In this document: one piece after another, positions 7,807 through 32,268 of the stretch | Layout of the letters: each line of letters begins with the position of its first letter | Position numbering within the stretch: position 1 is the first letter of the stretch | Assembly (NCBI GenBank): GCA_035578905.1 | Contig: JAQJVL010000286.1 | Span: 124,001-188,000, forward strand | From: Stictocephala bisonia | Taxonomy: Eukaryota > Arthropoda > Insecta > Hemiptera > Membracidae | Reading direction: 5' to 3' | DNA: 64,000 bases | Notes under the pieces: generated by a model | What the model was told of the DNA's origin: nothing | The model's database searches: none | The model's input: the letters and a program-made list of their open reading frames with translations, nothing else | Translations under genes and position numbers: made by a program

Positions 7807-8559
7807 TAATTGAAAAGAAAGTACGCAGTCATAATCTGTAAAGTGGATTACACATCTAATCTAATCATTTAAACGACTGATTGTTTATAACGATAGCTGT
7901 GACCCATTGTTACTAATGTAATTGAAAAGAAAGTAAGCAGTCATAATCTGTAAAGTGGATTACACATCTAATTTAATCATTTAAACGACTGATTGTTTAT
8001 AACGATAGCTGTGACCCATTGTTACTAATGTAATTGAAAAGAAAGTACGCAGTCATAATCTGTAAAGTGGATTACATATCTAATCTAATCATTTAAACGA
8101 CTGATTGTTTATAATGATAGCTGTGACCCATTGTTACTGATGTAATTGAAAAGAAAGTAAGCAGTCATAATCTGTAAAGTGGATTACACATCTAATCTAA
8201 TAATTTAAACGACTGATTGTTTATAACGATAGCTGTGACCCATTGTTACTAATGTAATTGAAAAGAAAGTAAGCAGTCATAATCTGTAAAGTGGATTACA
8301 CATCTAATCTAATCATTTAAACGACTGATTGTTTTAAATGATAGCTGTGACCCATTGTTACTAATGTAATTGAAAAGAAAGTACGCAGTCATAATCTGTA
8401 AAGTGGATTACATATCTAATCTAATCATTTAAACGACTGATTGTTTATAATGATAGCTGTGACCCATTGTTACTAATGTAATTGAAAAGAATGTACGCAT
8501 TTATAATTTGTAAAGTGGATTACACATCTAAACTAATCACTTAAACGACTGATTGTTTA
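7807..8559. repeat. 112-bp tandem array, interrupted by an insertion
   Basis: About 6.7 copies of a 112-bp unit starting TAATTGAAAAGAAAGTACGC and ending GACCCATTGTTACTAATG, with only a few substitutions between copies. The array stops within ...GACTGATTGTTTA at 8559 and resumes at 9257 with the same 13 bp, continuing to about 9306. The intervening 697 bp are therefore a later insertion. Confidence 0.95.
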
Positions 8560-8599
8560 AAGTGATTTATATACCTGCATTCAAGTAATCCAAGTCGTT

Positions 8600-8650
8600 G
8601 CTTCTGCAACCGGTTTCAACTCATCATGAGAGTCATCTTCAGGCCGTACA
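8600..8650 (-). ncRNA. Hammerhead-like motif, left arm copy
   Basis: Inverted copy of the motif described at 9125-9170. On the minus strand CTGAAGA lies at 8642-8636 and the palindromic ACCGGT at 8614-8609. Core bases match the right-arm copy. Confidence 0.5.
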
Positions 8651-8742
8651 AGGATGTAATAAAATGTGATCACTTCATATGAAGGTCGTCACGAACACAT
8701 AACGAATAACGGACACTACGAATATACGAACACATAAGAAAA

Positions 8743-9029
8743 CCCTCCCACCCACCCATATACTTACTATGTTATGGACCCTCTCATCCATCCATATACT
8801 TACTGTATTATGGACCCTCCCACCCACCCATATACTTACTGTATTATGGACCCTCTCATCCATCCATATACTTACTATATTATGGACCCTCTCATCCATC
8901 CATATACTTACTGTATTATGGACCTTCCCACCCAACCATATACTTACTGTATTATGGACCCTCCCACCCACCCATATACTTACTGCATTATGGACCCTCC
9001 CACCCACCCATATACTTACTGTATTATGT
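8743..9029. repeat. 36-bp C-rich minisatellite, locus 2 (inside foldback element)
   Basis: Eight copies of CCCTCCCACCCACCCATATA followed by CTTACTGTATTATGGA, 36 bp each. G-runs are on the minus strand. It occupies the centre of the 8560-9256 element. The apparent repetitive ORFs across it in several frames are a consequence of the 36-bp period. Confidence 0.95.
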
Positions 9030-9124
9030 GTTTTGTTATGTGTTCGTATATTCGTAGTGTCCGTTATTCGTTATGTGTTCGTGACGACCTTCATATGAAG
9101 TGATCACATTTTATTACATCCTTG

Positions 9125-9170
9125 TACGGCCTGAAGATGACTCTCATGATGAGTTGAAACCGGTTGCAGA
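9125..9170 (+). ncRNA. Hammerhead-ribozyme-like motif, right arm
   Basis: The plus strand shows CTGAAGA (9131-9137, fitting the CUGANGA core), a possible stem II ACTC/GAGT (9140-9143 with 9151-9154), GAA (9156-9158), the self-complementary ACCGGT (9159-9164) and T as the putative residue before cleavage. A palindromic stem III of this kind would pair well only between two molecules, as known for hammerheads of Penelope-like elements. Stem I is weak by eye (about two pairs). Activity is not shown. Confidence 0.5.
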
Positions 9171-9306
9171 AGCAACGACTTGGATTACTTGAATAAGGGT
9201 ATATAAACCACTTTAAGTATTGAACAGTGATCCGGAGGCTAATCCCCCAAAAATGAGACTGATTGTTTATAACGATAGCTGTGACACATTGTCACTAATG
9301 TAATTG

Positions 9307-11759
9307 AACATTGACAACTATAACAACGCTATCCACACCTAGGTCAATCCACTATCTACTGCATTCGAGGTTCAATTAGTTTGATCGTATGGATTTAAAC
9401 ATCGATGAATGCATTTGTAATAAAAACCATTTACGAAAAAAATTCAAAACTATACCACAACTAGAGTTAATTTATTTATGTTATTTAATGTAATACAACA
9501 AATTTAACATGATTTCGTTAGATTTCACATATATATGAGAACGTTTAAATCATTGTATTTATAAAGAATAGTGTCTCAATATGAGCCTACGCCTTACACC
9601 TAGTTTTAGTGAGTGGCGCTACTACACAGATGAAATGATGTCCTAAGTTGGCAAGAAGAGTGTTTTGAGGTTAATTAATTAAATTATTCGTTCTTTTAAC
9701 AACATATCTGTCAATAGGAAATGTCCCCAACTTAGAATATTTCACTGTGGTAGTAGAATATTTCCTTAACCGTGTTGTGACAGGTAGAGAGAGGCTACCA
9801 GTACTTGGGTAATCAGCAAAAGCCCATAAAAATACTCATGAATTGTTGTCAGGCTCACATTTATGAATTTGATTGATATCCAGTTTACATGAGGTGTTAT
9901 AGTTTTCATGTTTCTGTTGCATATTAATAAAAATGTAAAATGAAATTAATGTCAATTTTCATAAATAATTAATCTTTAATAGAAACATTATTCGAAGTAG
10001 TTAATTATAACTATCATTCTGGATACAAATATTAAAAGTTTATACAGAGAAAACCCGATATATTTTTGCAAAGATATCTAACAAAATAATGCAGTTTATA
10101 CCATGGTACAGCCTTCTTTACAGCATTACATTTATATATTTGGTAAACTGTGGTAAGAGTTAGTATTTATTAAGGAGGCTATATAATATGCTTAGTTAGT
10201 TAATAGCCAAGTAAATGGTCAGCATTCTAGTTCTAGATGTATTTTATACAATCACTCCCTTATGTTGTGTCATAAGTAAGGGAAGTCTATGTTTTAGCTG
10301 AGAAAAGTAGTAAATACTTTCAATTTATTTAGCCAACATAATGTAACTGAAAGTAGCTATTTCATACTCGTCAGTGCTTATTGGTAACACAATTAAGGTG
10401 TAGTTGGCTGCACAAATTTTGTGCATCTTAATAAGTTGATCTTAAGCTGTTCTTAATCTTAATATGTGCGTTCTTAATAAGTTGTTAATTGAAATAGTAT
10501 GTAATTAAATATGAAACTGTCCTTTCAAAACACTGCCAAGTTTACCTCATCTTATACAACAGATGGTACAAGGATCTCATCCTACTAAGATACTGATAAT
10601 ACAATTTTGTAATTAGTTCTTATTATTATGTGTTTATCAATTTAAACATTACCCTCAGTTACGAGACGTCCCCGCCGATCCATGCACGCCCATCACACCA
10701 CTCACGACTACGTATAGAGATTGCGTATGTTATTTACGTTTTTGTGTTTTTAGATAGTTTTTAACATTTTGACTATTTCAAAATGTTGAGAGATGCTATA
10801 ATTAATTTGATGCTACGTCAGAAACTTTTCTAAACATTAGCTTTATTTATATTGTTTTCAATATTAGACCATTTTCAAATTAAGTCATGTAGAGTGAAAG
10901 AGCTTGGCCTATGGACATGGGAGAAACGCTATCTGTTGGTTTAGAGCACAAAGAAGAAAGAAACTGAGGTCGTATCCAACTGTACGCTGACTGTGTGTCA
11001 AGTAGTTATTTATACAGTGTGCCATGTGGATGGCAGGGCCAGCAACTTGTCAGTTCCCCCATACAACCCCCCTCCCGTCACTCCTCACGGATAAACATAT
11101 TAATTATTACTACAGATATATAAAGATGTACATTAGTTGCAATCTATATAGCTGCACCTAGGTGGCTATAAGTAAACGACCTCCTCTTCTTTATTCTCTG
11201 TGGATTGAGGTTCAAGGCCTCAAATTCATGAAAAGCACATAATTTGAATGTTCCATAGCTGAACGAAACACTTGTGAATGAAAATGAACTATTACTGTAA
11301 TTTAGAGTTGGACGTAAGTATATTTGTGTTGAAAAATTTTAAAAACTAATTAGTTAAGTTCCATTTACACTTATATCTTTCTTCAAACTCAACCATTATG
11401 ACCGTTAAAAATACTCATGTAAAATAATAAATCCACATAGTTTCCTAGAACCAAAACGAAATAATTCAGTAATTAAAATAGGAGATGTTTTAAATACGAT
11501 TATTAACATACTTGATCAGATTTTAATGAAAAGTATGCAGGAATAAAACGTGTTTCGATGTAAATAGAAGATCATGAAAATTAAGTGAAGTGCATTGATT
11601 CATACCAAATGTGTGCATACAAATCTTTCATAAAGAATAAATAAATAATAACATCAGAAGGAATGGTTGATTGGGTAAACATTTATACAATAATACATAT
11701 TAACAACGATCACAATCAAAAAGCTCCACACACACACACATAGAAAACCATCTATCTTG
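9307..11759. other. AT-rich non-coding stretch
   Basis: About 2.45 kb with no gene recognised. Two short GC-richer patches (10665-10730 and 11030-11095) look like nothing I know. Confidence 0.45.
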
Positions 11760-12175
11760 AATTAAAAGGAATCGTTGCGAAGAATGGGTAGAAGTGAGTT
11801 GGCAACTGCCCAGCAAACAAGACGACTCCTCAGTTTGATAAGACAAAGGTCTGACTGTCTATGAAACTACGGGCCGAGCCAAACAAAAGGTCCTCGGAAC
11901 TCGTATCTCCTGAAAGGATTTTAAGATAGCGAAACGTTGAGGACTTAGCCTGAATGCCCAGTGCAGCCCACGGTACAGAGGATCAGTCCCTTCCTCCTTG
12001 GATGCCCCCTCATCGTGAGAACCTGACAGAGAAACTAGGTGAGCCACCTGGGAGCAACTCCCCTCGCTCCCCACGGGTCTGTGGGCAGTGACGACAGATG
12101 TCCATAGCCGAAACACACTGTTGAACCATCTGCCCTACGAGGCGGACTGGACGGCATGTATACTGTCCAAAGCAT
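11760..12175. other. GC-rich island, probable old repeat fragment
   Basis: About 400 bp markedly richer in GC than its flanks. On the plus strand near 11909-11943, TCTCCTGAAAGGATTTTAAG then ATAGCGAAACGTTGAG resembles a decayed hammerhead context: a CTGA box, GAA followed by palindromic ACGT, and CTC/GAG flanks that could pair. The CTGANGA core is not intact. An 85-aa minus frame (11859-12116) has no recognisable domain. Probably a fragment of a mobile element of unknown type. Confidence 0.4.
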
Positions 12176-12179
12176 ACAT

Positions 12180-15100
12180 TTTGAAAGAGGTAATATTTCT
12201 ATTATATCATTTAAAACGTTCCTTCATTATTTTCTAACGAAATCCTCCCAAATAGTGCGATGGATTTCTTAAGTAGCTAAGTTAACTGAGTCTTCGTTTA
12301 AATCAGTATAATACTGAATTTTCTTAAGTATTTTTTAAAAGTAATAATAATTATTTAAGTTATAAATTTTGAGGACAAATTTCAACAAAAATAATTATAT
12401 AGAATGATGGTGTGTTTCATTTTATTTATCTTATATAAATATGTGAGATACATCCACAGTAGCATGTATACACATACATTTGATCTCACTTTAATGTAAA
12501 CAAATGTTACGTTTGATATTCATGTTATGACAAGAAATGAATGCATGCACGATGTCAGCAAAACCGACCCTGGTAGGACTTTATTATAACATTTGCATGC
12601 ATACATCAATTGACTTAAATCTATCACGTTTTTGCGACACCTGTTAAATGATGACTTTTAAATGATGATGTTAAATGATGAGGTTAAATGATATATTATT
12701 GTGGCAATATGGAACTTCCTTAAGATAAAAAATACGTTAGATATTTAGTTTCTTTTTTTCAAACTACATATCACTTCAATGACTATTATATGTAGCTTTA
12801 TCCTCATAGAAACTTCTTCCATCTTATTAATTTGTGGTATTTTCCTTCGTAAATGCTTTAGAATCCTTCAATTGATAAAAAAAGAGGTCAACCATTTAAA
12901 ATCTTGAAACTCAATAATTAACAAACAACTCTACACTATATATTTAAAATGATCAATATGACTCCAAAAGATCTGCAACGTATGTCCCATCCATGTAAAT
13001 CTATAACTAAGTTTAAGGAGCTATTTTAATTATTCCTAATGCATGATAATAAGTATTGAAGACTTTTTAAAATGATACAGCATTTGATTAGAATATAATT
13101 TTAAACATTGTTTGCTCCTGGTTTAAGTTAGTTTCATTTTGAAACTGTTTTATATTACTGTCATATTTATGATTCTTTCAATTGAAATAAAGAGAAACAG
13201 AACTCATGAAAAGAAGATAGGAAAAAGATATCGGGTAGCTACATCTTATATTACACTCTTGTTGGTATAGACTGTTTCGTTTTATGTACTGGTATCAACT
13301 GATATAAGATCAAATTTGGAGTGTTTAGATAATTTTTTATAGTAACGGATAGCACAAACTATAAAGTTAATTAAGAATTATTTTATTGTTTACATTTATT
13401 ATAACATTAGTTGATTATTTTTTGGTTAAAGACGATAAGAAAGTATATAATCTTTTGGTCAGTTAGACCTCCTTAATGCATGTAAGTAATGCAAGAAAAT
13501 CATAAACTCTATGAAATGAGGTATACGAATTGTTAGATGAATTTGATATGTAAGGGTTGGTTTTCACTGAAGCCGTAGGTAGTGAGTGACTCCCTCAGGA
13601 ACGGTAAAATACTCCCCCTCGCCGGTTATTCAGGGCTCCCAGGATACTTGTTACGTAGGAGTGAGGTCTCTTCCTAGCTTATACCAGGTGAGCTTATTTA
13701 CAAAACACTAGTTAGTAAATGTATACAACAATTTATAATAATCAACCAGTATCTCTTACTTTTTATGATATTAAAACTTTGGTCACAAATAATTTGATAC
13801 CATAGCTGTTCTCTTATCATTATGTTTACGATTTGTTTACTTTCTTATTAAATTTTAAAAAGCAGCAGTTAAATTATTTGTAATATGTTTTCTTGAAAAG
13901 GAATAATTTATTAAATATGAAACCAGCAGATTCAACTACTACAAACACTAAAAATATTAAACAAAAATACAAATTGGGCAGAAAATGAAATACTTGGAAA
14001 TATGGTCCGCTAAAACTAAAAATATTTATTTTCTCTAAATGATGTAACAAACCCTTAAATAAAATACCAGTAATTTTTTCACTACATGTATATCTTAACT
14101 CGTTATAGTTAGTTAAGGCCAAGCTCAATAGTCAAGAGTTCTTCTAATGCGTAATCAATCAATGTAAAATAACTTATGAATAAGATAAATATTGATGTTA
14201 ATTTGACCTTAATGAAATCCAATTTTTAGGTAAAGCTACTTTAATATGTCATAATACACTGAATTGCAAATAAAACTGAACTACACTCTTCTTCTAACTG
14301 TATTCCTGTCCCCAATGAAGCCTTCTTCGTGAGGGGTGGGTGGGCAGAATAGCTACTAGATAGTCAAATTCATCACAATAATCCCCAATCTATGTTCACT
14401 GATAAAACATATAACGATAAAATAATTCGTGAAACCAAATTTTACGTTTTAAATTTCAGATAGTTTGAGTTATAAAATCTATTAAAACTTTTAGTTTATC
14501 TCCACAGGAGTTAATCTTATGACTATTACTTAAAAATTAATTTATGTAATGAAAATGCATTTGGCTACTTAAATAGTCACTAATATGCACAAATGTCTCG
14601 TTCTTTACTTACATGTCTTATTCATCAACACAATTTTAACAACACCGGATGATGTACAGTAATTTCTCAGAATGTTATAGATACTGCAAATGCGGTATGT
14701 TCTCTCCTACTGGAATGTATAGACTGCTTTATAAGAAGTAATAATAGTAATAATCAGATACATTTGGCATTTTTGTTTGAATTTCTACAGTTTCTCGTCT
14801 TTTTGTCCTCCAGAAGACACTACAATTATTTTTTTTAAGGTGAGTCCATCAAAATCAAAGTTACAGTACATATGAGGTGATGTTTTTTCAGTGGTGTTCA
14901 AATCCTACCTGTGACGTGATCTGAACATCTCCATTTCTGGACCATGAAAGAATATTTCTAGTCATAGAAATAAAATTAATTTCACAATACAGATAGTTTC
15001 TTGTAAAATAGATAAAAACCAATTCTATATTTTGAGTTGGATCGCTTATGTCGCGGCCAAGACATGAACTGATGGGAACGAATCCTTTTTAGACGCTTAG

Positions 15101-15923: not shown

Positions 15924-15946
15924 TCAAAAACATAAATACAGGGGAG

Positions 15947-16062
15947 ACAAAGGTAGTTGGACATTTGCCATCATTACGTGATAGTTACCAATCACGACGT
16001 TTCGATTTGGTAAAAACCCAACCTTTTTCAAGTGCTAAAAACTAAATTACATCTACACAAAC
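15947..16062 (+). repeat. PLE terminal repeat, left, with decayed hammerhead
   Basis: Inverted partner of 17691-17806 at about 90% by eye. On its minus strand it reads AGCACTTGAAAAAGGTT, then CCAAATCGAAACGTCGTG. This fits a hammerhead whose CTGATGA box has decayed to CTTGAAA, whose stem II could be TTGG/CCAA, and which keeps GAA + ACGT (palindromic stem III) + C, with CAC/GTG able to form stem I. Confidence 0.7.
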
Positions 16063-16704
16063 ATGTTATAGAACTACGTTCTTAAACTAATAAACTTATC
16101 TACTTTAATAATTATCTACATTTTAACCTAGATCCTAGAATGGGGTACAACAAAATGAACTTCTACTAAATATAAAAATGTTAACAGGGTTAAATTAATA
16201 TAACAAATTAGGCGCTGTTAAGGTCACGATATCAACGAAAAAAAGTTAAAATACAGTTAAATTAATATTCAAATCTGACTGAAACAAGGTTAAATTAACT
16301 AATCATAAATAAAATAAATATATGGTACCTAAAAAACACTATTATTTTAAAATGACACTCAACATGCACAAAAAAAAAAAAAAAATATATGACTCGGAAG
16401 GACTGAGTCTACTAGTACAATTACGTTTTAACCTGAAAAGACAACAATTATTAGGAATAAAACAATACAATAATCAAATATTACAAAAATGATGAAGTCT
16501 TACTACCCGCAGTGTCGATGGCGTCTAGACGTCCCAGGCACGAAGTGAGGATGATACAATCCAAATGCAGTGTCTATGAAGTTCCCTCCAAGGTGATAAA
16601 ACACGGGGACAAGACAAACATACACACTACACTTCACAACAACCATACACAGACTGACGAGGTCAGGGGGACGTACGCTCCGAGATCGCCAAGAATGCGG
16701 TGAC

Positions 16705-17209
16705 TCAGGTACGGGGACGGGGACGTAGACTCATGGGGTGTTTAATTGTTGAAGGTGCAGGTGGTGTAGGATTCTGGTTAGATGATGTCATGAGTGTACT
16801 AAACTTTTTATCAAGTGTGTTTTTAAGTAAAGGAACCCACATGGGTCTAACTTCTATGCTACTTTGACTGATTACTTGTTCATTATTTAGTTTCATAAAG
16901 GCACCTTCCATGAATTTACGTTAAAAAAACTGTGGTTCCCTGTGAAGTATTTTAGTGTTATTCCAGTTAAATCTGTGTTTATTGTTCCAGGAATGTTCAG
17001 CTAATTTAGAATGTATAGTGTCTCCTTTTTTAATGTTATTTTTGTGTTCTTTTAGCCTAAATTCCAGTGGTCTCTTTGTTTCCCCTATGTATTTTTCATT
17101 GCATTCACAAGTAATGCAATATACTACATTTTTGGAGGATTGCGTGTTGAATGATGTGCTGATTTTGTATTTCCTAGCTATGCGTCTGATTTTGTTTGAA
17201 AGTTAGGCG
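16705..17209 (-). pseudogene. PLE GIY-YIG endonuclease domain
   Basis: Minus-strand translation from about 17208 reads LSNKIRRIARKYKI and, after a short linker, VVYCITCECNEKYIGETKRP then LEFRLKEHK, ending HREPQFF at 16924. The VVYCI ... YIGET pair is the GIY-YIG signature. The R of EFRLKEH and the following histidines and asparagines are in the usual order for PLE endonucleases, and the C-x-C near the first motif fits the zinc-binding linker of this family. A TAA at 16921-16923 interrupts the frame; it then continues RKFMEGAFMKLNNEQVISQ and ends at 16705. A frameshift near 17210 separates it from the RT. The domain cuts target DNA to prime reverse transcription in active PLEs. Here it is broken by one stop and one frameshift but otherwise well preserved, so the insertion is not very old. 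Confidence 0.85.
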
Positions 17210-17690
17210 TATATGGAATGGACATGAATGCTTTAGGCTTTTATGTGTCAGTGGGTGTTTGTTTGTGTTTTCTTATTTGTTTGCATTTGTTTATAAGAGA
17301 CTGAGGGTAGCCATTGTTTATTAGATCTTTGGAAACATTTTTTAGTTCATTATCTAGTTTAGTTTTGTCTGAGCATATGGCTCGGGCCCTATCAAAGAGA
17401 GAGAAGGCTACACCTTCTTTAACAGTTTGTGGGTGGTTAGAATTGAAATCGAGGTATTTGCCTGCAAAATTGTTTTCTGTAGACTGATGTTTTAAGGCCA
17501 TGTTTTGTTTTTTCTACATTTACATCCAAAAATGATAATTTATTGTTTACTTCTTTTTCCATGGTGAATTTAATGGTGGGTGAAACTTTGTTTAAGTGTT
17601 TTAAAAATTCTTCTAAATTTGGTTCACCGTGACTCCAGCAGACACATGTGTCGTCCACGTACCTAAGCCAAACCTTAGATTTGAGATTTG
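17210..17690 (-). pseudogene. PLE reverse transcriptase, C-terminal part
   Basis: The minus strand from about 17688 reads KSKVWLRYVDDTCVCWSHGE, where YVDD is the catalytic palm motif, then PNLEEFLKHLNKVSPTIKFT and NKLSFLDVNV, which match the post-YVDD part of Penelope-like RTs (FTME ... FLDV). A frameshift near 17470 moves the reading into a second frame that continues GKYLDFNSNHPQTVKEGVA, SLFDRARAIC and LINNGYPQSLINK, the conserved thumb/linker of the family (the 86-aa frame 17241-17501). Everything N-terminal to YVDD is missing and the sequence runs directly into the right terminal repeat, a typical 5' truncation. No functional protein is possible. Confidence 0.88.
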
Positions 17691-17806
17691 TGTAGATGTA
17701 ATTTAGTTTTTAGCACTTGAAAAAGGTTTGGGTTTTATCTAATCAAAAAGTCGTGATTGGTAATTTTCACGTAATGATGGCAAATGTCCAACAACCTTTG
17801 TCTCCC
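17691..17806 (-). repeat. PLE terminal repeat, right
   Basis: Reverse complement of 15947-16062 with scattered differences; here the GAAACGTC of the partner has become AAAAAGTC. About 28 further bases (17807-17834) form the one-sided extension before the target-site duplication. Confidence 0.85.
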
Positions 17807-17865
17807 TCATCTGATACTCCATCACTAACAAATTTCAAAAACATAAATACGACTAGAATAAACAT

Positions 17866-18610: not shown

Positions 18611-21096
18611 TCTCAATGACCTTTGTTCGGTTGATGTACGCATTAATGCTTTCTACTGTAATTACCATTTTCTTAGTCCGTGGTTTAAATGTACCAGTTA
18701 TATGTGTGAGTTATTCATCTAAACGTAATTTTATTGTTGAATTATAATGAAATTAGATTCAATAATGATCATCTCGTAACTATTGTTGTATTATTGTAGA
18801 TATAGGGTTTAACCCATGTGTGGTACTGTTTTTTTTACTGCTTACATTAGTTGTGTGTATACTATTATTGATATTGTATAGGATACTTTTAACATATTAC
18901 CTTGAATACTACAAAATATAACATTACTTATTTCACAGTATTTCAAAGTATGTGTGGCATCTGTTTTCCTTCATCATATTTAAATTTTGTTTATTTATAC
19001 ATCTATTTTTTTCATTCAACCTTGGTGTAGATGATACCGAACTAAATTATACCTTAAATTGTTTAAACATTTTAACGTGGACTGAGTGCAGAGTATTCAG
19101 AGGTGCAAGTATATGGAAGTGACAAAAATAAATTGTCAGGTGGAATGTGAGTTTGGTGAGCTGAATGAATAAGTAATCGTTTAATTTGACGAATGTAAAC
19201 CATCAAAAACTGAAATGGGATTAGTCCAAACTCTCACCCAACGAAGGAGTGATTTAGTTATATCAATTTTAAGAAATATTGATGTAAATACATTCATAAA
19301 TCACAGATCAAGTATATAATTTGTAATTCAGTTTAATTCAATTAGTATATATGTTTTATTCTTAATTAGTATATATGTTCCACTTATAAATAGCAATTCT
19401 GACTTGTGAACAATTTCAGTTTTTGTACTGTTATTTAATAGTAGTTTCATATTTAATAAACAGTTACTTAAATTATGCTTTGTATTGCTGTGAGATATAT
19501 TTTCAATATAAATAGAATATGACATAAAATATGGATAGTAATATGCCATTAAAGTACTCATCTTGCACTAAATATTATAGAAAGAGAGTTTATTAACTCT
19601 TTCAAAATCAGACAGTAAAAATAAATATGTTTATTAATTCATTTATAAACAAATGAAATAATTAACTATAAAATGATTACTGCCAAGTTCATTTTTAACA
19701 GACCACTGTTTGATGCATTTGACCGAGAAAAATAATCCCATTTAAATTGTCAGAACTTCCTATTTTAAAACTTATAACTATATCCAACTGTTATATATTT
19801 ATACACTGCTATTTATTTTAAGTTATATATTTTGTTGTACATAAATTAAAATTATTCGATTTAAAAGGCAACGAGGAAAATAAATTTGTATATAAAGGCG
19901 AAAAACCAACAAATAACTTTTACTTAATCCTTTTTTAGCCAAATTAAGCATTCCAACATGTGGAAACGGTGAGCCAAAAATAAACTCTGTATGCAACTAA
20001 ATTATTTTTTTTTTTAACATCGTATAGTTAAGTAAATAGTCTCATAGACATGAGTTGGTAGAGTGTCATTTCGCTTAAATTGTAGATGTATTATTGGCCT
20101 GGCTTATGTTAGACATCAATCTAAATTGGATTCTAAGTTTCGGGCCATTACCATATTCAAAAAACCAAAACTTCGGTAATATGCTGAAAAAGAAATAGTA
20201 ACAGAGTTGGTTTAAAAAGTCATTACTAACCACATCTGGCCGGATCGCGAAGGTAAATGGACCAATCTGAACGCGTTCCAAATGTAAATTGTTCTCGAAA
20301 GAATGAAATGACCAATTTCAGGTAGCACGTGTTTTGCTTGTCGATAGTATCTGTGGAAACAGTGTCACTACCACCATTCCGCTCCTTATTTGCAAACTTG
20401 CCATGAATATGTAAGGTGAGTAAGTAGTGAAGGGCAACTACAATCAGCCAACTTCGAATCAGCCAAATACAGTATACAGGTTAATGGAAAACAAAAGATA
20501 TCCAAACAAATAATATATTACATAACACATATGTATATCGTGCCCAAAATCATATCGTGTCTATTTATGTTTATTGTATAGTTTGTGATGTAAATATTCT
20601 TGTGGTTAAAATCCTTTTGTATTCAATAAAGGACGCGAAGCTCAATACGTAAAACCACCCTTCTGCAACATCAAACTGCTTATCGATTATTTGTTTATCG
20701 ATTTTCGATGTTAAGAAATTTGCTGAAGTTATTTTCCAATAATTTACGAAGATAAATCTGCGTTTAACAGATATTTTAACGAAGCAAGGCTGAAAACAGC
20801 GTCGGTTACTGACGCAGTCTAAGTGGAGTTGGGAAAAAATTAATGCAGATAAGTCTTGTGCGCACCCATTCTCCTATTAAGTCTACTTATTTTTTTAATC
20901 GAATCTCCTTTCAAATAAAAACATAATATATTGTCTTGATGGTTGACGCGGAATTATCAATTGTGGATCGACGTGTTTAAACATTATTTTGGTCTCCAAT
21001 ATATGAAGTGTAATAGTATCACAGTCTACTGGAGGGTTCTTTATTAGTTTTTATGTTTTAATACATTTCATGCTGGTAAATTGATTTCTTGAAATA
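18611..21096. other. AT-rich non-coding stretch
   Basis: About 2.5 kb with no gene recognised. The 77-aa and 68-aa minus frames (19328-19561, 20075-20281) have no known motif. Confidence 0.5.
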
Positions 21097-21447
21097 ATGA
21101 AAACACATTTTATTAGACTAATATTTAATAAAGGGAAGCATGAACCATCCTTGCCTCAATTCAAACAACTAAAAATGCGTCCATTAAAATATCTATTTGT
21201 TTATAAAGCACTGAAAATGCATTATGTTCGTAGAGGTAACATTGGAATATATAGAATGCACTACAGGACTAGGATGTATTCTCAAGGCCTTTTCTTAAGA
21301 CTTCGAGTAAACAAAACTATGTTTAGTAAATATTTTGTGTTCCTCGGACCCAAAATCTTTAATTTGTTGCCTCAGTACATAAAACATTGTAATAATTTAC
21401 ATAGATTTCAGATTACACTCAAAAAGTGGCTTTTAATAAGGACTTAA
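21097..21447 (+). pseudogene. Non-LTR retrotransposon ORF2 C-terminus
   Basis: A 116-aa open frame containing RLIFNKGKHEPSLPQFKQLK, PLKYLFVYKALKMHYVRRGN, YRTRMYSQGL and FLGPKIFNLLPQYIKHC, ending KKWLLIRT. The order (PSLP, P-L-x-Y-L-x-V-Y-K, R-x-G-N, Y-x-T-R, G-P-K-I-F-N-x-L-P) matches the region after the RT domain in jockey/CR1-type LINEs. It carries no RT motif, and no RT was recognised upstream, so this is a 5'-truncated copy. The frame itself is intact. A 3' UTR-like stretch follows to about 21800. Confidence 0.75.
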
Positions 21448-21925
21448 TTGAAATTTTTCAGTGAAATGCTATTTAATGTAACTTTACATAGTTGTCTGAA
21501 TATGTAACCAATGCTTAACGGTGTGTACAATTGTATAGTTATTATTGTAAATGTAAACTAGTATTAGTAGGGAATATTTGTACTACATGTTAATTAGGTT
21601 AAGTATTTGGATAACAAACCAATTTGGATAACAAATCAAAGTTAGTGATAGATTTAGGATATGTGCAGTGGAATGTATTCATTGTCCAGTTATCAGTTCT
21701 TGTCAGCAGAAGTGATTTTAGTTTGCAGATAAGGAATACTAAAGCCGACACGCGCTACAGCAACCCACCGCTGGGATTATTATTAAAGCACAGACTGTAT
21801 TAGTTCATATTATTTTTATGTACTGTGCTAGCCATCAGAACTTGTAAAGATGGCTAGAAATTCTAAGTAAAATTTTGTAAAATTTTGTTCTGTATTGTAT
21901 AAGAGTGGAATACTTATTCTTATTT

Positions 21926-22179
21926 GACATTTGTAGCTATTAGATTGCTTAATATTTTTATATATATGAAGAACAACACTTAGCAATCTTTTTTTGGTGG
22001 TTTTAATGTTCAAGATCGATTTCTGTCTCGAAAGACCATTATCAGTTGAAAACAGAATAAAAATAACCCTATTTTTATTCTGTTTTCAACTGAGGAAGGT
22101 CTTTCGAGACAGAAATCGATCTTGAACATTAAAACCACCAAAAAAAGATTGCTAAGTGTTGTTCTTCATATATATATAA
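21926..22179 (-). mobile_element. Small PLE-like palindromic element with hammerhead motifs
   Basis: A 254-bp insertion between perfect 14-bp duplications ACTTATTCTTATTT (21912-21925 and 22180-22193). About 105-bp arms (about 21960-22065 and 22074-22179) are almost exact reverse complements around the short centre near CCCTATT. The left end has about 35 extra bases (21926-21959), the same one-sided extension as the other three elements but in the opposite orientation. No coding sequence. Hammerhead-like motifs sit in both arms. Confidence 0.8.
22083..22130 (+). ncRNA. Hammerhead-ribozyme-like motif, intact core
   Basis: Right-arm copy: CTGAGGA (22090-22096) fits CUGANGA. A GTCT/AGAC stem II with a TTCG loop follows, then GAA, palindromic ATCGAT as stem III (22115-22120) and C (22121) as the putative cleavage residue. 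Stem I is a perfect TTCAA (22085-22089) with TTGAA (22122-22126). The base before GAA is A rather than the usual C of stem II, a possible weakening. The inverted copy in the left arm reads CTGATAA and would lack the conserved G8. Confidence 0.65.
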
Positions 22180-22193
22180 ACTTATTCTTATTT

Positions 22194-23134: not shown

Positions 23135-23310
23135 TGACCCACCCGCCGACCCATACACGTACAGTGGTAATTACCCACCCGTCCACCCATATACGTACAC
23201 TGGTATTGACCCACCCACCCATACACGTACAATGGTATTGACCCACCCGCCACCCATACACGTACAATGGTATTGACCCACCCGCCCACCTATACACGTA
23301 CAATGGTAAT
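23135..23310. repeat. 36-bp C-rich minisatellite, locus 3
   Basis: About five units of about 36 bp (some 32-35 bp after small deletions) built on GACCCACCCGCCCACCCATA and CACGTACAATGGTATT. It lies immediately upstream of the mariner-like transposase relic. Confidence 0.9.
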
Positions 23311-23319
23311 GAGTCCAAT

Positions 23320-25205: not shown

Positions 25206-28200
25206 ATGCGTGCATTTTGAATAACTGAGGTCGTTTTTAACATGGTCTGCGACATTTAAATGTTTCGTAAAACAAGTTAGTCTTGTTAATTCGTTTTATA
25301 AAAGTTTTGAAAATATAAGATTATGATTAATTGAGATTACATTTGATACATCCAATGATTTATTCATTCAGTTAGCAAAACACAGTGTAAAATTTCAGTT
25401 GAAAAAAATCACCGATAACCCTTTAGGCCGAAATTCCAATTATTTTCGATTATTTGTGAACCGATCACAAAATTTGAGGTTCCAAACATTTTATAGGGTA
25501 ATATACTGTTTTTACTTACATTATAAATTTATTACATTGGTTTTTATGAAAAATTATCATCAAAGTCAAACTTTTAAATGGCCACCATTACGAAATAATT
25601 AAAGATATTTTAATCAACCAAATAGGGCCTAACATTTAAGAATAAATAAAACCAATAAAGAGTGTACAAAAATAGTTTAAATCAATGTTTAATTCCTCCG
25701 GCATGACTATCTTTCATTTCCAATGAGTTACATAAAACATTAATTCCATAATAGTAATGTCGTAAGAAGACACCTGTTTAATCAACAAAAACTAATTATG
25801 TATTTACTGATAGCTTGAGAAAATCTCCATCCATATAATTTACTCTGTGACTATCTACTACCATTTTGTAGTACTACAACATAATACATACTTTGACAAA
25901 GACTAGGCAGTGGCAGTATTTTAAATGATTCTTGAAAGTTTAACAATAATGTCTTACAGAATGGGAGAGGTGTGTTTTATGTCATGGTTCAAGTGTGGAT
26001 AGGCAATGGTTGTGGAGTAATCAAGCTATTTTATGATTTTGACTAAATTGACTGAAGATAATTAATACGACCGAGACCGTATCTGCTGACGAGGGTGAGT
26101 GGAAGAATCTCTGACAGATCAACACTACCTAGGGTCATCGCATGGTCGATGTGTGGAGGGAGGTCTCCAGTGTAAGACTCCTGATGTGTTTGCAATGGTA
26201 GGAAAGTGGTGGCAGCGTCAGTTTGGACGCAAGATCAAACCCATTATGTTCAGTAATGCATATAGTTTGTTCAAATCTCCTATATAAGGTTCGTTTACTC
26301 ATAGAAGGAGTCACCATGAGAGAAGGTTACAAAACTTAGTTTCATATCTAAGTTTCAAAGAATTAGACATATAATGATCGTAGTTATTTTTAGCGGATAG
26401 TCTTGGACTTATTTTCCACTAAACCTTGAACCACCTGCTCTCATAAAATCTAGCATTCTTTACAAAATAATTGCTACATACAATGTCTTTAGGCGTTTTC
26501 TTGTTTCATACATTTATACGCAAAAAACTCTCTCAAGGACTTTCATCCACCAGTATAGGTAAAATAAACTATTTGACTATAGTCTGTTTGATAAACAACC
26601 CTACGATTTTATACATTAAGTTACCTAAAATGTATAAAAAGTGAAGAACTGTTTATAAAAAATTATACGTTACCTTTATTGTTTATGATGATTTATTAAT
26701 ATTCATATTGTTTATAATAAATTTTTTGTTTCATATAATAATTTTACAATATATTAATCAGTCTAAATTACTAATGATATCTATCTATTTAATAACAGTT
26801 AATGAGTTATTTATATAAATTATATTATATTACTATCTATTCAATAATCATGTAACATACTATACCCAGCGAACATTTCAGCTACATAAAAGAAAAATAG
26901 TATACATAATTAACGTGTAAACAGAGAACATTTAGTTTATGGTTAAAAAACAACTAAGGCATCATCACTCTCCAGATTAGACAGGTTCTAATGGCCCTAA
27001 TTGTAATAATTCAATAAGAAAACTGATAGTAAAAACAAACAAAAAGCAAAATTGAGATGACAGTACGGCATTGACAGGATGTAAAAGAAACGTGATGACA
27101 AATCAACACCAATAGAGTGATTGATGTCGAGTTGATGATAATACGATGAAGTCGGCAGAGAGTGTGGCACGTCATCAATTTTGCCCGGTTGGCCAAGGGA
27201 GGGGGGTTGGACATGATGGTGTTGGTCGACGAGCTACATGGATAAAAACAGCAACTCCATCACCACCATACTGCAGTAAACAGCATGTCCTGTTACTCAA
27301 TTATTGAAAGTAAATTAATAAACCTCCCCAATAATCTCTAGGGAAACAGAATTTATGACAGGATTACAGGTTTGTTAACAACAAATATGTGTTTTTAAAC
27401 ATTGTCGTTGCACTTACAGTCGTTTATTTGACCAAGTATACTAAAATAATAAGAAATATATATATATAAAATAAGTTGTGACTATGTAAAAATGTTACGA
27501 AGTTTTATTTAAAATAATTATTCTGTCTAAGTATCTAACAAGTTCAAGTGAAGGTGTCATATGTCACAGAACAGTCAGGGTAATTTGTTATCCTTGCTAG
27601 AAATATGTTTGTCCAACTATTGTTTTGTATACATAGTCAGGGTTTATTTTCCGGAAATTCAAACAAAAATGTTTTTCAATTTTTGTCAATTATCTCATTG
27701 CTTGTAATAACGTAATTATAAACTTGTAAGACCAATGTTAAGCTTTATGGCATAAAGGGTACGCAAATATGATGTTTTGATTAGCTGTTTTTGGCAAATT
27801 GCCCATATTTAAAAAAAAAGGATCATATTGGTATAGATTAATCTGTTATTTCTTTCAATCCTCACATTTTCATAGTTCTCAATCAGATATGTCATTATGT
27901 TACGTCATGGCCACGTGCTGTGTCGTTATGTTTGTAATTATTTACTCTCAGGAGAGTGGGTGTATCTGTTTACAATTATGAATGAGAAAATGCATAACCA
28001 TACATTAATATGATTCTACCGGTGATAAAGCCAGAATTAACCAGGAAGACATGTTATTTATGTAGTTTTTAATTCGTTGTATTATTTATTAATTTTTGAA
28101 ACAAACTATGGCATTCAGTCAATCCAGTCAAGAACGAAAGCACCATATGGGGGAGAGGGAAACCTAGCGTAAACTTTATGTATATCTTCATTCCATCCCG

Positions 28201-28430
28201 CTTGCCTTGAGTTGAAGGATGCCAAGTATGAAATCTACAAAAGTAAGTTTTACACTGTGGTTCTTGTCTTAAGAAAATCAATTATGACTCTCATACTTTA
28301 ACTAAGCTAGCCACTACTGGAAAATCAATAATGCAATGGTCATTAATTTCACTTTTACGCTCGACAAGATAAACGTACTGAATTTTGTCAAGTCTTTGAG
28401 CTCTTATCATATATGCATTTGTATGGGATA
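25206..28430. other. AT-rich non-coding stretch
   Basis: About 3.2 kb. Short open frames (25399-25602, 26099-26317, 27011-27214, 27799-27981, 28069-28281) were read and have no recognisable domain. GC-richer patches at 26060-26300 and 27030-27290 may be old repeat fragments. Confidence 0.45.
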
Positions 28431-28560
28431 GCTGTTGGCCAAGTGGTTTAAGGCATCAGGAGCCTAAGTTAGAGATAATGCAGGTTCGAATCATGGTTTT
28501 GTCTACAAATGGTAACTTAATCTATGGGACTGCATAGATGATGTTAAAAAAAGATCGGTC
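28431..28560 (+). mobile_element. tRNA-derived SINE (Ser/Leu-like head)
   Basis: An RNA polymerase III promoter pair is visible: box A TGGCCAAGTGG at 28436-28446 and box B GGTTCGAATC at 28483-28492, with the spacing and GGTTTAAGGC context of a class II (Ser/Leu-like) tRNA. The tRNA cloverleaf is not complete, and a non-tRNA body (TACAAATGGTAACTTAATCT...) follows, so this is a SINE rather than a tRNA gene. Confidence 0.7.
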
Positions 28561-29656
28561 TTTCCTTAAAAAAATATTCTAGAACATTGAACGTCTTGAC
28601 TCAGACGTTACAGCGAAATTTAGCATCTGAGACTGCAAGATTTTCTAAAAAAATTGCTAGTCTTAAAAAATAAATCAGTGACTTAAGGCAGTCTAAAACT
28701 CTAACATCAGAGTTGTACCGTCCCACTTCCTCTGCACGCTAAGGTAAATAAGAGAAGAAGGGGAAAATGGTGAAGAAAGCTGAGGTAGCTCTTAGCTGAA
28801 GCTGTGTCATTAGTACATAAGAATACATTAGTTAGGTATTTCTCAGCCCCTTAATGTATATTATAAGATTCAGTTAGTAGACCCTTTTTTACAATGAGGA
28901 AATGACACGTGGTCAGTGGTAATCACCAGACAAAGCCAATAGTGTTCTTCAACAATATCCGAAGAAAGTGAGTAAATATGACTATTAGAAGTGGATCCAC
29001 AAGCACCTGTGTTGTTGATAAGTAGAAGGCTCTAATAGTCACTAATTATAGCCTTGACGTCACTTGAAGATATTTTCCATCTTTGTTGGAAATAGGTGTC
29101 TAATATGTTGCCAGATTAAAAACTAAATAAATACAGGCTATAAGTCTTTCAATAATGCATTGGCTGAACTTGAATTTTCCGGAGTCTTTAAAGCAAACAT
29201 GTGGCTGTCTGGTCTTTTGCTTGATCAGGCATCTGAACCCAATTTTTGTTTATGGTGATCAACAAATTAGTATTGCATATTAATAAAGGAAGGTAAAGAG
29301 GTAGATAATTATATATAATTGCTATATGAAATTAGAAAAAATTACCACTTATTTTATTTATATGCTCAAAATATTATAAATTCAACTATATAGAAGCAGC
29401 TGCTAAAATATTACACGTCTACTGTGGAAATATACTTTAACACTTTTAATGCTTTATAAATACGTGTATGAGATTAAAATCTTAGCAAATACAAAACAAA
29501 AAATAGCTGTAAAATAAATAAAATAAAACAGTGAAAAATCATGATAAATCAAAACAAACAATGACTTTTGTCATAATATGTAAACAATCATAAAATGTGT
29601 CAATAGTTAATCAAAATATTAAATAGGAGGGTTTGATGGTCCTTAAAAACGTGTTT
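28561..29656. other. AT-rich non-coding stretch
   Basis: No gene recognised. The 28560-29100 part is less AT-rich and may hold an old transposon fragment that I cannot name. Confidence 0.4.
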
Positions 29657-30366
29657 ATATTTTAGAACTACTACTCCCTACTGTTATATTTTAGAACTAC
29701 TACTCCCTACTGTTATATTTTAGAACTACTACTCCCTACTGTTATAGATAGAACTACTACTCCCTACTGTTATAGATAGAACTACTACTCCCTACTGTTA
29801 TAGATAGAACTACTACTCCCTACTGTTATATTTTAGAACTACTACTCCCTACTGTTATATATAGAACTACTACTCCTTACTGTTATAGATAGGACTACTA
29901 CTCCCTACTTTTATAGATAGAACTACTACTCCCTACTGTTATAGCTAGAACTACTACTCCCTACTGTTATAGATAGAACTACTACTCCTACTGTTATAGA
30001 TAGGACTACTACTCCCTACTGTTATAGATAGGACTACTACTCCCTACTATTATAGATATAACTACTACTCCCTACTATTATAGATATAACTACTACTCCT
30101 TACTGTTATAGATAGGACTACTACTCCCTACTTTTATAGATAGAACTACTACTCCCTACTGTTATAGCTAAAACTACTACTCCCTACTGTTATAGATAGA
30201 ACTACTACTCCTACTGTTATAGATAGGACTACTACTCCCTACTGTTATAGATAGGACTACTACTCCCTACTATTATAGATATAACTACTACTCCCTACTA
30301 TTATAGATATAACTACTACTCCCTATTGTTATAGATAGAACTACTACTCCCAACTGTTATAGATAC
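29657..30366. repeat. ~27-29 bp tandem array
   Basis: About 26 copies of GAACTACTACTCCCTACTG plus TTATAGATA (or TTATATTTTA in the first copies). A block of about 190 bp starting near 29881 recurs near 30108, including the same one-base deletion (ACTACTCCTACTG), which shows segmental duplication inside the array. Confidence 0.95.
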
Positions 30367-30765
30367 GATAGGATGACGAGTTGTTGCCTTTGAGAGCTGC
30401 AATACATTACATAACTTCAAATGTAAAATATTTGTCTATGGTCAATTTATTTTTAAAATTAACAATGTTTGCTTCATATAAAGTTGTATAATTACTCAAA
30501 AGTTGTCATTCAAAAAGTATGCATATTATTAATAGACAAATATACAATATTGCAGTGGAGAATGTGAAGGCGATAAGAAGAGATTTCTGTAACAGGCTCC
30601 AATCAAAACGGAAATAAGCACATTGCAATTGGCCCCAATAGTCTCGTTCGAAATCTAGTTGTTGACCTCATTGCATGCCGCCTGCAATTGAAAACCTCGT
30701 ACTTAAACAATTCAATAATGTTTCACTGCAACATTTAATTAAAAACCGTTCTAAACGTTAACTCT
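30367..30765. other. AT-rich non-coding stretch
   Basis: Nothing recognised. Confidence 0.4.
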
Positions 30766-30850
30766 GTACATTGTGACTGAGCGGCTAAATCAGCTGATTG
30801 TGGAAGGCAAGGTTCCGGGTTCGAGTGCTTAACTAAGATAACGGTCATTT
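30766..30850 (+). mobile_element. tRNA-derived SINE head, second family
   Basis: Box A-like TGACTGAGCGG at 30774-30784 and box B-like GGTTCGAGT at 30818-30826. The tail (AACTAAGATAACGGTCATTT) differs from the other SINEs in the window. Confidence 0.6.
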
Positions 30851-31033
30851 CTTTATTGGTGAAAGACATGAAGAACTCTAGAATTATATGTCAAGTTAAA
30901 AAATCTAACTACAACAGTAATACGATGTACATATCCTGATGTCCTAATATATATACATTACAAATCAGTACATAAATAGTAAAATAAAATGTTTACCTTT
31001 TAATGTTAATATTTGTTAAACAATTAGTTTATG

Positions 31034-32255
31034 AACGTTGAGTTCATTCTCCGTCATCCACTCTAATGGAACTGTATGTCAATAATTACTTCAAGAAAAT
31101 GAAGACAATTATATGACATCAACTCAGTTCGCTGTAGTGTAATGGTAAATAGGAAACTCTCACCTATTTACACCTGATGAGACGAAACAACGTCGAAACA
31201 GCACACATGGAGACCATCTAGTCCACGTACCAACATCTTTTCGGTGTGGCCTAATGCATAGTAACCAACTGTTGTCAGTTGGCACCTTAGCAGTACCCAA
31301 GGGGTGGTTTACTTTTGTAAACGCAGAGTAACCCGTAGACTTGTGTCATTCGAAAAACTGCAATCATGTGTAATAATTGATGTCTTAGCGACCATTGGTT
31401 AGAGGTTCGCCCTGTGATGGTAGCGAGTAACATGCTCGTGAGTCCAAAAGCCAGTCTTAACCAGGTCAGTATGGTTAAAGCGCTACAAAGTTGAATGTAT
31501 GAAGCACTTTTAGTATGAATGGAGTGTGAATGCACGGCTGTTACCACCTCATGTCGTTTGGTGGAAAAGGGGTAAGAATGGCTTTTGGACTCACGAGCAT
31601 GTTACTCGCTACCATGAGAGGGTGAATCTCTAACCAATGGTTGCTAAGACATCAATTATTACACATGATTGCAGTTTTCCGAATGATACCCCTTTCCACC
31701 TAACGACATGAGTGCTTCCACAAAAGTGCTTCATACATTCAACTTTGTAGCGCTTTAACCATACTGACCTGGTTAAGAATGGCTTTTGGACTCACGAGCA
31801 TGTTACTCGCTACCATGACAGGGCGAACCTCTAACCAATGGTCGCTATGACATCAATTATTACACATGATTGCAGTTTTCCGAATGACACAAGTCTACGG
31901 GTTACTCTGCGTTAACAAAAGTAAATCGCCCCTTCTAGGATCTGCTAAGGTGCAACTGACAACAGTTGGTTGCTATGCATTAGGCCACACCGAAAGGATG
32001 TTGGTACGTGGACCAGATGGTCTCCATGTGTGCTGTTTCGACGTTGTTTCGTCTCATTAGGTGTAAATAGGTGAGGGTTTCCTACTCACCATTACACTAC
32101 AGCGAACTGAGTTGATGTCATATAATTGTCTTCATTTTCTTGAAGTAATTATTGACATACAGTTGCATTAGAGTGGGTGACGGAGAATAAACTCAACGTT
32201 CTTAAACTTACTCCACTACTAAGATCTTCGGACTAACAACTCGTCCATCTCGATT
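31034..32255 (+). mobile_element. Long PLE-like foldback element
   Basis: A 1222-bp insertion between perfect 13-bp duplications CAATTAGTTTATG (31021-31033 and 32256-32268). The arms of about 520 bp (31034 to about 31565, and about 31690-32203) are nearly exact reverse complements beginning AACGTTGAGTTCATTCTCC. The right end carries about 52 extra bases (32204-32255). A segment of about 110 bp containing GGACTCACGAGCATGTTACTCG occurs three times: inverted in the left arm (about 31380-31475) and twice on the plus strand (about 31573-31690 and 31774-31890). No protein domain is visible; the 86-aa and 64-aa frames are mirror images produced by the palindrome. Each arm also has a tRNA-like patch (TAGTGTAATGG ... 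CTCTCACC) near its outer third. Confidence 0.8.
31165..31205 (+). ncRNA. Hammerhead-like motif in left arm
   Basis: CTGATGA (31174-31180), a perfect 4-bp stem II GACG/CGTC (31181-31184 with 31191-31194) and GAAA (31195-31198) form an intact two-box core. The following ACAGCACAC does not form an obvious stem III, so the present sequence is probably inactive. The right-arm copy reads CTAATGA. Confidence 0.5.
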
Positions 32256-32268
32256 CAATTAGTTTATG

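What the first reader, a model, noticed from the sequence alone, without database searches (positions are those of the whole stretch)
8547..32268. Four foldback insertions with the same Penelope-like architecture
Insertions at 8560-9256, 15940-17834, 21926-22179 and 31034-32255 share five traits: a perfect 13, 16, 14 and 13 bp direct duplication at the edges; inverted terminal arms; a 28-52 base extension at one end only; hammerhead-like motifs in the arms; and no known DNA transposase. Their arms are unrelated in sequence, so they represent four families with one mechanism. One holds PLE RT and GIY-YIG remnants. Penelope-like elements are known to have inverted or direct terminal repeats and to carry hammerheads. 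That three coding-less families are mobilised by the same machinery is inference.
Basis: partly seen in the sequence, partly recalled or inferred. Interest (0 to 1): 0.88.

Follow-up and report, generated by a model that had tools for sequence, protein, structure and literature searches.

The report
Penelope-type foldback insertions with ribozymes
Four hairpin-shaped DNA insertions beside an insect ion-channel exon carry the marks of copy-and-paste elements of the Penelope type, and one of them belongs to a non-coding family with an unusual hammerhead ribozyme reading in the opposite direction.

Summary
Four foldbacks (E1-E4) have perfect 13, 16, 14 and 13 bp direct repeats, inverted arms (92-97% alike) and an extra "tail" at one end only. 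For E1, neighbouring units of a 112-bp array give an empty site.

E2 is a 5'-truncated Penelope-like element (PLE) with RT and GIY-YIG remnants; its tail reads as the start of the PLE protein. E1 and E3, unrelated to it in sequence, share its outward-pointing minimal type I hammerhead-like motif, 58-68 nt from the tail-less end.

In the 1.68-Gb genome, arms of the E1, E2 and E4 families end mostly at two discrete outer points, with or without tail, and inner ends vary; E3 copies have a one-sided tail (39 of 40 loci). This fits reverse transcription started at two adjacent template sites, one per cut strand, not a DNA transposon.

E4 lacks the outward motif. It carries a type III hammerhead pointing inward (143 exact copies of its core pattern; 19 of 19 close opposite-strand pairs among the 100 places listed converge) on a ~705-nt tandem unit: retrozyme-like, inserted PLE-style.

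Not shown: that PLE protein moves E1, E3 or E4; TSDs of their other copies; ribozyme activity. A few copies have tails at both ends.

The parts
8547..8559 (.). E1 left TSD (13 bp), inside a 112-bp tandem array (7805-8559)
8560..8743 (-). E1 left arm, end without tail; minimal hammerhead-like motif starting at 8642 on minus, pointing outward (left)
8742..9028 (.). E1 centre: 36-bp minisatellite
9030..9216 (+). E1 right arm; minimal hammerhead-like motif starting at 9131, pointing outward (right)
9217..9256 (+). E1 tail (40 nt); 36 of 39 other tail-type arms end within 3 nt of the same place
9257..9269 (.). E1 right TSD
15924..15939 (.). E2 left TSD (16 bp)
15942..16061 (-). E2 3' pLTR arm without tail, with minimal hammerhead-like motif starting at 16031 minus; carries the start of the PLE frame (MMANVQLPLSP)
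16714..17691 (-). E2 PLE remnant: from just before the YVDD motif to the C-terminus with GIY-YIG; three blocks in two frames, 5'-truncated
17687..17806 (+). E2 inverted 5' pLTR arm
17807..17834 (+). E2 tail; in frame with the PLE N-terminus (SSDTPSLTN); many family copies match about 9 nt further, into E2's TSD
17835..17850 (.). E2 right TSD
21912..21925 (.). E3 left TSD (14 bp)
21926..21954 (-). E3 tail (29 nt)
21955..22179 (.). E3 near-perfect palindrome; outward minimal hammerhead-like motif in both arms (22045 minus, 22090 plus)
22180..22193 (.). E3 right TSD
31021..31033 (.). E4 left TSD (13 bp); its last bases resemble the end of the element
31026..31511 (.). E4 left arm (end without tail)
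31131..31202 (+). E4 type III hammerhead with intact core, pointing inward (CTGATGA at 31174); the right-arm copy has CTAATGA
31548..31712 (.). E4 centre: inner hairpin enclosing a third, diverged copy (31570-31689) of an arm segment
31722..32208 (.). E4 right arm
32209..32255 (+). E4 tail (47 nt)
32256..32268 (.). E4 right TSD

Best explanation
The four insertions are products of Penelope-type retrotransposition. An endonuclease cuts both target strands with a 13-16 bp stagger. Each cut end primes reverse transcription of its own template, at one of two adjacent start sites about 28-47 nt apart, usually one site at each end. The two cDNAs run towards each other, stop at variable points and are joined head-to-head. 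The result is TSD, tail, arm, ragged centre, inverted arm without tail, TSD. E2 is a truncated coding PLE. E1 and E3 are coding-less copies with PLE-type terminal repeats. E4 belongs to a ~0.7-kb tandem, coding-less, retrozyme-like family inserted by the same kind of reaction. Shown: the anatomy, two outer-end classes (E1, E2, E4) or a one-sided tail (E3) in genomic copies, variable inner ends, and PLE coding in E2. Inferred: priming by both strands, and use of PLE protein in trans.
For: TSD, arms and one-sided tail in 4 of 4 and in 7 of 7 of the survey's TSD-bearing inverted repeats, E1-E4 included. E1 empty site. E2 PLE coding, tail in frame with the PLE N-terminus, and E2-family copies overlapping PLE protein matches at 6 places. 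Minimal type I descriptor matches only E1, E2 and E3 in the window, 0.03 expected per 64 kb of Markov sequence. Outer ends: E1 tail-type arms 225-230 in 36 of 39; of 10 two-armed E1 loci 9 have one tail; E2 26 tail, 14 no-tail, 6 elsewhere of 46 arms; E4 41 tail (1233-1240), 22 no-tail (1171-1195, 18 of them 1182-1190), 4 elsewhere of 67 arms, and 15 of 18 loci with inverted arms have one of each outermost; E3 39 of 40 loci one-sided, 0 both. Inner ends vary. An independent PLE with RT and EN remnants (L022) has an 11-bp TSD, outward motif and one-sided 36-nt tail. PMC11167929 (main text read): a PLE protein cleaves and extends both strands and starts RT at two sites bounding the 'tail'. PMC3846280 (passages and Discussion): inverted pLTRs, 31-bp one-sided tail, TSDs. 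PLE frames in this genome: 55 scored of 14,738 candidates, some without stops.
Against: TSDs of other copies of E1-E4 could not be read. Not every copy has one tail: of 9 two-armed E2 loci 3 have one of each, 1 has tails at both ends, 5 have one end elsewhere; 1 of 10 two-armed E1 loci has tails at both ends; 3 of 18 E4 loci with inverted arms have one end elsewhere. E4 lacks the outward motif, has a longer tail and an oppositely directed ribozyme. G12-to-end spacing is not universal: 58-68/90-101 in E1, E2, E3 and L009, but 109/150 in L022 and 110/136 in L026 (weak motif). No coding partner with E1, E3 or E4 ends was found; none of the 55 P0001-type PLE places scored coincides with a listed E1 arm. 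The hammerhead descriptor was written after seeing E1-E3. PMC3846280 prefers self-priming on an antisense template for the inverted arms. [quoted passage not shown]
Confidence: 0.8

Rival explanations
1. The inverted arms arise from one cDNA that snaps back and primes on itself (or on an antisense template), as proposed for Adineta vaga PLEs, rather than from priming at both cut ends.
For: Proposed in PMC3846280 (Discussion). E3 is an almost closed palindrome, as a snap-back would give. In 5 of 9 two-armed E2 loci one outer end is irregular.
Against: Snap-back predicts one fixed and one ragged outer end. Here the tail-less outer end is also fixed in many copies: E1 188-192 in 7 of 9 arms, E2 1886-1893 in 14 of 46 arms, E4 1182-1190 in 18 of 67; raggedness lies mostly inside. 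PMC11167929 shows both strands cleaved and extended in vitro.
Confidence: 0.17
2. E1, E3 and E4 are MITE or foldback DNA transposons with long terminal inverted repeats, unrelated to PLEs.
For: Short, coding-less, multi-copy, with inverted termini and direct repeats.
Against: In the window's four and in most genomic copies examined a tail separates one inverted repeat from the target. Direct repeats of 13-16 bp exceed those of known cut-and-paste families (recalled). Outer ends of two classes and variable inner ends are the pattern of reverse transcripts.
Confidence: 0.05
3. E4 alone is a separate system: a type III hammerhead, retrozyme-like circular-RNA element inserted by some other reverse transcriptase; its likeness to E1-E3 is convergence.
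For: No outward minimal motif, longer tail, inward type III hammerhead; ~705-nt tandem unit, close to the 600-800 nt of plant retrozymes as quoted in PMC7229834 (passages).
Against: Same two-class outer ends with one tail in 15 of 18 loci with inverted arms, 13-bp TSD, variable inner ends.
Confidence: 0.3

Closest known systems
Penelope-like elements with inverted pLTRs (Pen2a of Adineta vaga, PMC3846280; Poseidon of Anolis, PMC11167929)
   Same: Inverted terminal repeats, a one-sided ~30-40 nt tail, TSD, 5' truncation. In A. vaga the pLTR carries the first 12 codons and the tail extends this to 22; in E2 about 11 and 20-21. Anolis hammerhead cut at +26 and RT start at +111-118 give 85-92 nt (my subtraction; the text does not say which of the two start sites this is); here cleavage base to tail end is 91 (E1), 82 or 91 with the family end (E2), 88 (E3), 90 (L009).
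   Different: E1 and E3 have no coding between the arms; TSDs are longer (13-16 versus 8-10 bp in the passages read).
Captured sequences between solo pLTRs in A. vaga (PMC3846280)
   Same: pLTRs suffice to mobilise unrelated DNA in trans, flanked by TSDs, by that paper's inference.
   Different: E1, E3 and E4 are multi-copy families with recurring ends, not single captures.
Metazoan non-LTR retrozymes and plant LTR retrozymes (PMC7229834, PMC7761336; passages read)
   Same: E4: coding-less tandem unit with a full hammerhead; type III and ~0.7 kb as in plants.
   Different: Metazoan retrozymes have type I hammerheads and ~170-400 nt RNAs; plant ones have LTRs. E4 is foldback with a one-sided tail, and its ribozyme lies on the strand opposite to the inferred template.
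Atypical type III hammerheads of HDV-like circRNAs, termites and flies (PMC7936874; passages and sections 3.1 and 3.2 read)
   Same: Short first helix I stem, internal loop, ~20-nt cap hairpin (E4: 6 bp, 6-nt bulge, 19-nt cap).
   Different: E4 lacks the GCCR/YGGC loop pairing and has a 4-bp helix II. That paper reported no such motif in the hemipterans it searched, and found the termite genomic motifs isolated, without recognisable ORFs nearby.

Membership tests
Penelope-like elements | Encodes PLE RT and GIY-YIG | tested here: met
   E2 only. E1, E3 and E4 show no such frames (tblastn of 100 PLE relatives hits only E2), so they fail as autonomous PLEs.
Penelope-like elements | Inverted or direct pLTRs with optional one-sided tail | tested here: met
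   4 of 4 in the window; E1-E4 families in the genome, with exceptions
Penelope-like elements | Minimal type I hammerhead in the pLTR, sense towards the tail | tested here: met
   E1, E2, E3 and, by eye because of a stem II mismatch, L009. NOT met in E4. E2 and E3 copies carry changes in or near the core.
Penelope-like elements | TSD on insertion | tested here: met
   4 of 4, empty site for E1; not testable for other copies of E1-E4
Penelope-like elements | Ends shared with a coding PLE of the same genome | tested here: inconclusive
   E2: met, family copies overlap PLE protein matches at 6 places. E1: two direct copies 2.8 kb apart fit one PLE unit but coding was not read. E3, E4: none seen.
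Retrozymes (E4) | Coding-less tandem unit with full hammerhead | tested here: met
   143 exact copies of the core pattern, control 0; 4 direct pairs 704-714 bp apart among 100 places listed. The pattern does not cover stem I or the 5' strand of stem III.
Retrozymes (E4) | Type I hammerhead, 170-400 nt RNA (metazoan form) | tested here: not met
   Type III, ~705 nt
Retrozymes (E4) | Circular RNA intermediate | not testable with these tools
   needs RNA
MITE / foldback DNA transposon | Terminal inverted repeats abut the TSD on both sides | tested here: not met
   in families by end classes

The most novel reading that the evidence does not exclude
E4 is a new class of retrozyme: a ~705-nt coding-less RNA unit with an atypical type III hammerhead, parasitic on the Penelope machinery. 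Its template strand is the complement of the ribozyme strand, so the element would use both RNA polarities, one for ribozyme processing and one for insertion. It would give the type III hammerheads seen as isolated motifs in insect genomes a host element, and give PLE-mobilised retrozymes anatomical evidence.
Probability: 0.35. Interest if true: 0.8.

Novelty: new variant of a known kind. Interest (0 to 1): 0.62.

Why it matters
How Penelope elements come to form inverted repeats with a one-sided tail is not settled in the papers read here. Many copies of four unrelated families in one genome show two recurring outer ends and variable inner ends, which makes the two-start-site, two-strand reading directly testable. 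E4 bears on a second open question: which enzyme moves ribozyme-bearing circular-RNA elements in animals.

Tried and rejected
Rfam: 0 matches at gathering thresholds in the window, 0 up to E 1 in E4 as a whole. For the E4 hammerhead segment alone the best-scoring match was Hammerhead_3 with 13.2 bits, E 2.7, below its 48.5-bit threshold; E1 and E3 segments gave no hammerhead hit; E2 was not searched on its own. Single-strand folding did not single out E1 or E3 motifs (z 0.35 and 0.87), and for E4 gave z -1.92 or -0.94; its best fold is a three-way junction with stem I in a register 2.4 kcal/mol better than the hammerhead register. Exact motif searches of viral contigs: 0. PLE loci in viral and genome contigs: none. 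An A+C-rich tail as a shared mark was weak (60% versus 50%, reached by 2.9% of random sets). Distances for E1 are one base short (G12 is 9156 and 8617, giving 101 and 58; one search has 58). Papers not held: Cervera 2014, Lunse 2017; known here only as cited by others. Confidence was lowered from 0.82 to 0.80 after a recount showed copies with tails at both ends.

Rows dropped: one search leaves out the window's own matches and the last 15 short matches printed, whose list was itself cut; 8 of the 15 are of right-arm type, 7 in the two end classes and 1 (1139) not. One search's E1 and E2 lists leave out the window's own copy; one search includes it. One search uses the 100 places listed of 143. 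The scored sets are capped: 40 of 276 (E1), 2922 (E2), 1635 (E3), 586 (E4) candidates.
Full report
WHERE. The window is part of a 1.683-Gb assembly of 11,105 contigs (C286:124001-188000). A minus-strand exon at 36374-36784 is a small-conductance Ca-activated K channel whose best match, 91%, is named Homalodisca vitripennis, so the host is very likely a hemipteran insect. E1-E4 all lie on one side of that exon.

OBSERVATION. All four foldbacks, their direct repeats and one-sided extensions are as described. Of the inverted repeats listed for the 64 kb, the others had direct repeats of at most 9 bp near their ends. E1's repeat sits in a 112-bp tandem array, where a 13-bp match means little by itself. 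But the joined flanks align without gaps over 139 bp to five other array units at 91-93%, so the array supplies an empty site and the duplication is real.

E2 IS A PENELOPE-LIKE ELEMENT. On the minus strand it carries the last ~330 residues of a PLE protein, from just before the YVDD motif through GIY-YIG, as three blocks in two frames, 44-62% identical to the three 828-836 aa PLEs printed. Reading outward, its arm and tail form one open frame, MMANVQ(Q/L)PLSP|SSDTPSLTN. The relative P0010 begins MANVRHVGSHNQPSFRNF and others begin M(N/T/S)F. About 11 codons thus lie in the arm and 20-21 with the tail, against 12 and 22 in Adineta vaga (PMC3846280, passages). Genomic arms of the family often match about 9 nt further, into E2's TSD (mode 1920, 11 of 46), so template and target probably shared those bases. 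At 6 places E2-family DNA matches overlap PLE protein matches by about 1 kb.

E1 AND E3 SHARE E2'S MOTIF AND SPACING. Outward on the arms lies [CU]UGANRA, one or two unpaired bases, a 4-6 bp hairpin, GAAA, a self-complementary CG, CCGG or UCGA, then UH, then a strand pairing 2-5 bp with the bases before the core. That resembles the minimal type I hammerhead, lacking the non-conserved bases of helix III, that a review ascribes to PLEs (PMC7761336, passages). The descriptor, written after seeing them, hits only E1 (both arms), E2 (one arm) and E3 (both arms) in the window; 100 Markov sequences gave a mean of 0.03 per 64 kb. In the independent 300 kb it hits 6 places. Three of these are one repeat, and in L022 that repeat lies at both ends of an RT and EN remnant. 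From the first G of GAAA to the tail-less end is 58, 64, 68 nt (E1, E2, E3) and 61 in L009, whose motif was found by eye; to the tail end 101, 90 (99 with the family end), 98 and 100. L022 has 109 and 150, with a repeat inside its pLTR; L026, with a weak motif, 110 and 136. The spacing is therefore common, not universal.

GENOMIC COPIES. E1: 40 of 276 candidates scored; of 39 other tail-type arms 36 end at 225-230 of the query (tail end 227). Of 10 loci with two arms in opposite orientation, 9 have one tail and one tail-less end (7 at 188-192, one each at 178 and 202, inner ends 1 to 132), and 1 has tails at both, 840 bp apart. E2: 40 of 2922 scored; 35 of the first 40 other rows begin at the same base, 19, while inner ends vary; of 46 right-arm matches 26 end with the tail, 14 without, 6 elsewhere. 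Of 9 two-armed loci 3 have one of each, 1 has tails at both ends, 5 have one end elsewhere. E3: 40 of 1635 scored; 39 of 40 loci, the window's included, have the tail on one side, 0 on both, 1 on neither. E4: 40 of 586 scored; of 67 right-arm matches tabulated 41 end at 1233-1240, 22 at 1171-1195 and 4 elsewhere. In 39 loci, 10 simple inverted pairs and 5 triples have one tail and one tail-less end outermost; 17 show one arm, 4 direct repeats only, and 3 have an end elsewhere. Recurring outer ends of two classes with variable inner ends are what reverse transcription from two adjacent start sites would leave. The both-tail and irregular copies show that one tail per insertion is a tendency, not a rule.

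SURVEY. In window plus 300 kb, 7 of 38 inverted repeats have 10-bp or longer direct repeats at their ends, all with a one-sided tail; swapped-flank control 16 of 1306. The three beyond E1-E4 are L009, L026 and the doubtful L018. L022, whose arms are too far apart for that scan, adds an 11-bp TSD and 36-nt tail.

MECHANISM. PMC11167929 (main text) found that a purified PLE protein cuts and extends both strands and starts reverse transcription at two internal sites that bound the tail; it saw no difference in start site between the strands. Two cDNAs, one from each cut end and each from one start site, meeting head-to-head, would give this anatomy. I did not find this stated for the inverted arms in the parts of the two PLE papers I read; PMC3846280 favours self-priming on an antisense template. 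Library searches for 'twin priming' with Penelope and foldback with Penelope listed no paper that looked to be on it, by title and abstract start. That is no proof of novelty: key papers are not held.

E4 STANDS APART. Its left arm holds a type III hammerhead: stem III GCUGU/ACAGC, stem I GUGUAA/UUACAC with a 6-nt bulge and a 19-nt cap hairpin, CUGAUGA, stem II GACG/CGUC, GAAA. The descriptor gave 1 hit in the window and 0 in 150 x 64 kb of Markov sequence. The other arm has CUAAUGA, which should be inactive (recalled). A 23-base pattern of the core, stem II and one strand of stem III occurs 143 times in the genome, control 0. Among the 100 places listed, close opposite-strand pairs are 19 convergent and 0 divergent; 4 direct pairs are 704-714 bp apart and one 89. 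So the family is a ~705-nt tandem unit with the ribozyme pointing inward, on the strand opposite to the one that ends at the recurring outer ends. The layout resembles the atypical type III hammerheads of HDV-like circRNAs, termites and flies, without their loop pairing (PMC7936874, sections 3.1 and 3.2). That paper reported none in the hemipterans it searched. A review names PLEs as likely movers of metazoan retrozymes (PMC7761336, passages); E4's ends fit that idea but do not prove it.

LIMITS. No other E1-E4 copies could be read base by base; only coordinates were available after 300 kb. No coding partner for E1, E3 or E4 was seen. No ribozyme or enzyme activity was tested.

Noticed in passing
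window 36374-36784 minus: Exon of a small-conductance Ca-activated K channel, best match 91% named Homalodisca vitripennis; points to a hemipteran host.
   Followed up: yes
window 48372-53882, 60109-64000, 34320-35690, 4510-5416, 29663-30365: Large minisatellite arrays (92, 67, 38, 65 and 28 bp units, up to 60 copies); the window is very rich in them.
   Followed up: no
window 3946-4090, 8742-9028, 23135-23312, 39552-39870, 57763-58094: 36-bp CACCC-rich minisatellites recur; one forms the centre of E1 and matches the arrays near 4000, 23200 and 39700 at about 65-75%.
   Followed up: no
window 21085-21447 plus: 120-codon open frame that looks like the C-terminus of a LINE protein (recalled resemblance only).
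   Followed up: no
window 31548-31712 (E4 centre): A 27-bp hairpin encloses a third copy of an arm segment, about 6-8% diverged, with flanks unlike those in the arms.
   Followed up: partly
L022 2010-5938: 5'-truncated PLE of another clade with inverted pLTRs, outward hammerhead-like motif, 11-bp TSD and one-sided tail.
   Followed up: yes
L018 3115-4707: Inverted repeat with a 30-bp direct repeat and one-sided 32-nt extension; may be a local repeat instead of a TSD.
   Followed up: partly
G000 contig C900, 276361 and 276450: Two exact E4 hammerhead patterns in direct orientation only 89 bp apart.
   Followed up: no
G000 contig C580, 374355-375648: Two E1 arms in opposite orientation, 840 bp apart, both with tail: an exception to the one-tail pattern, or two insertions.
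   Followed up: no
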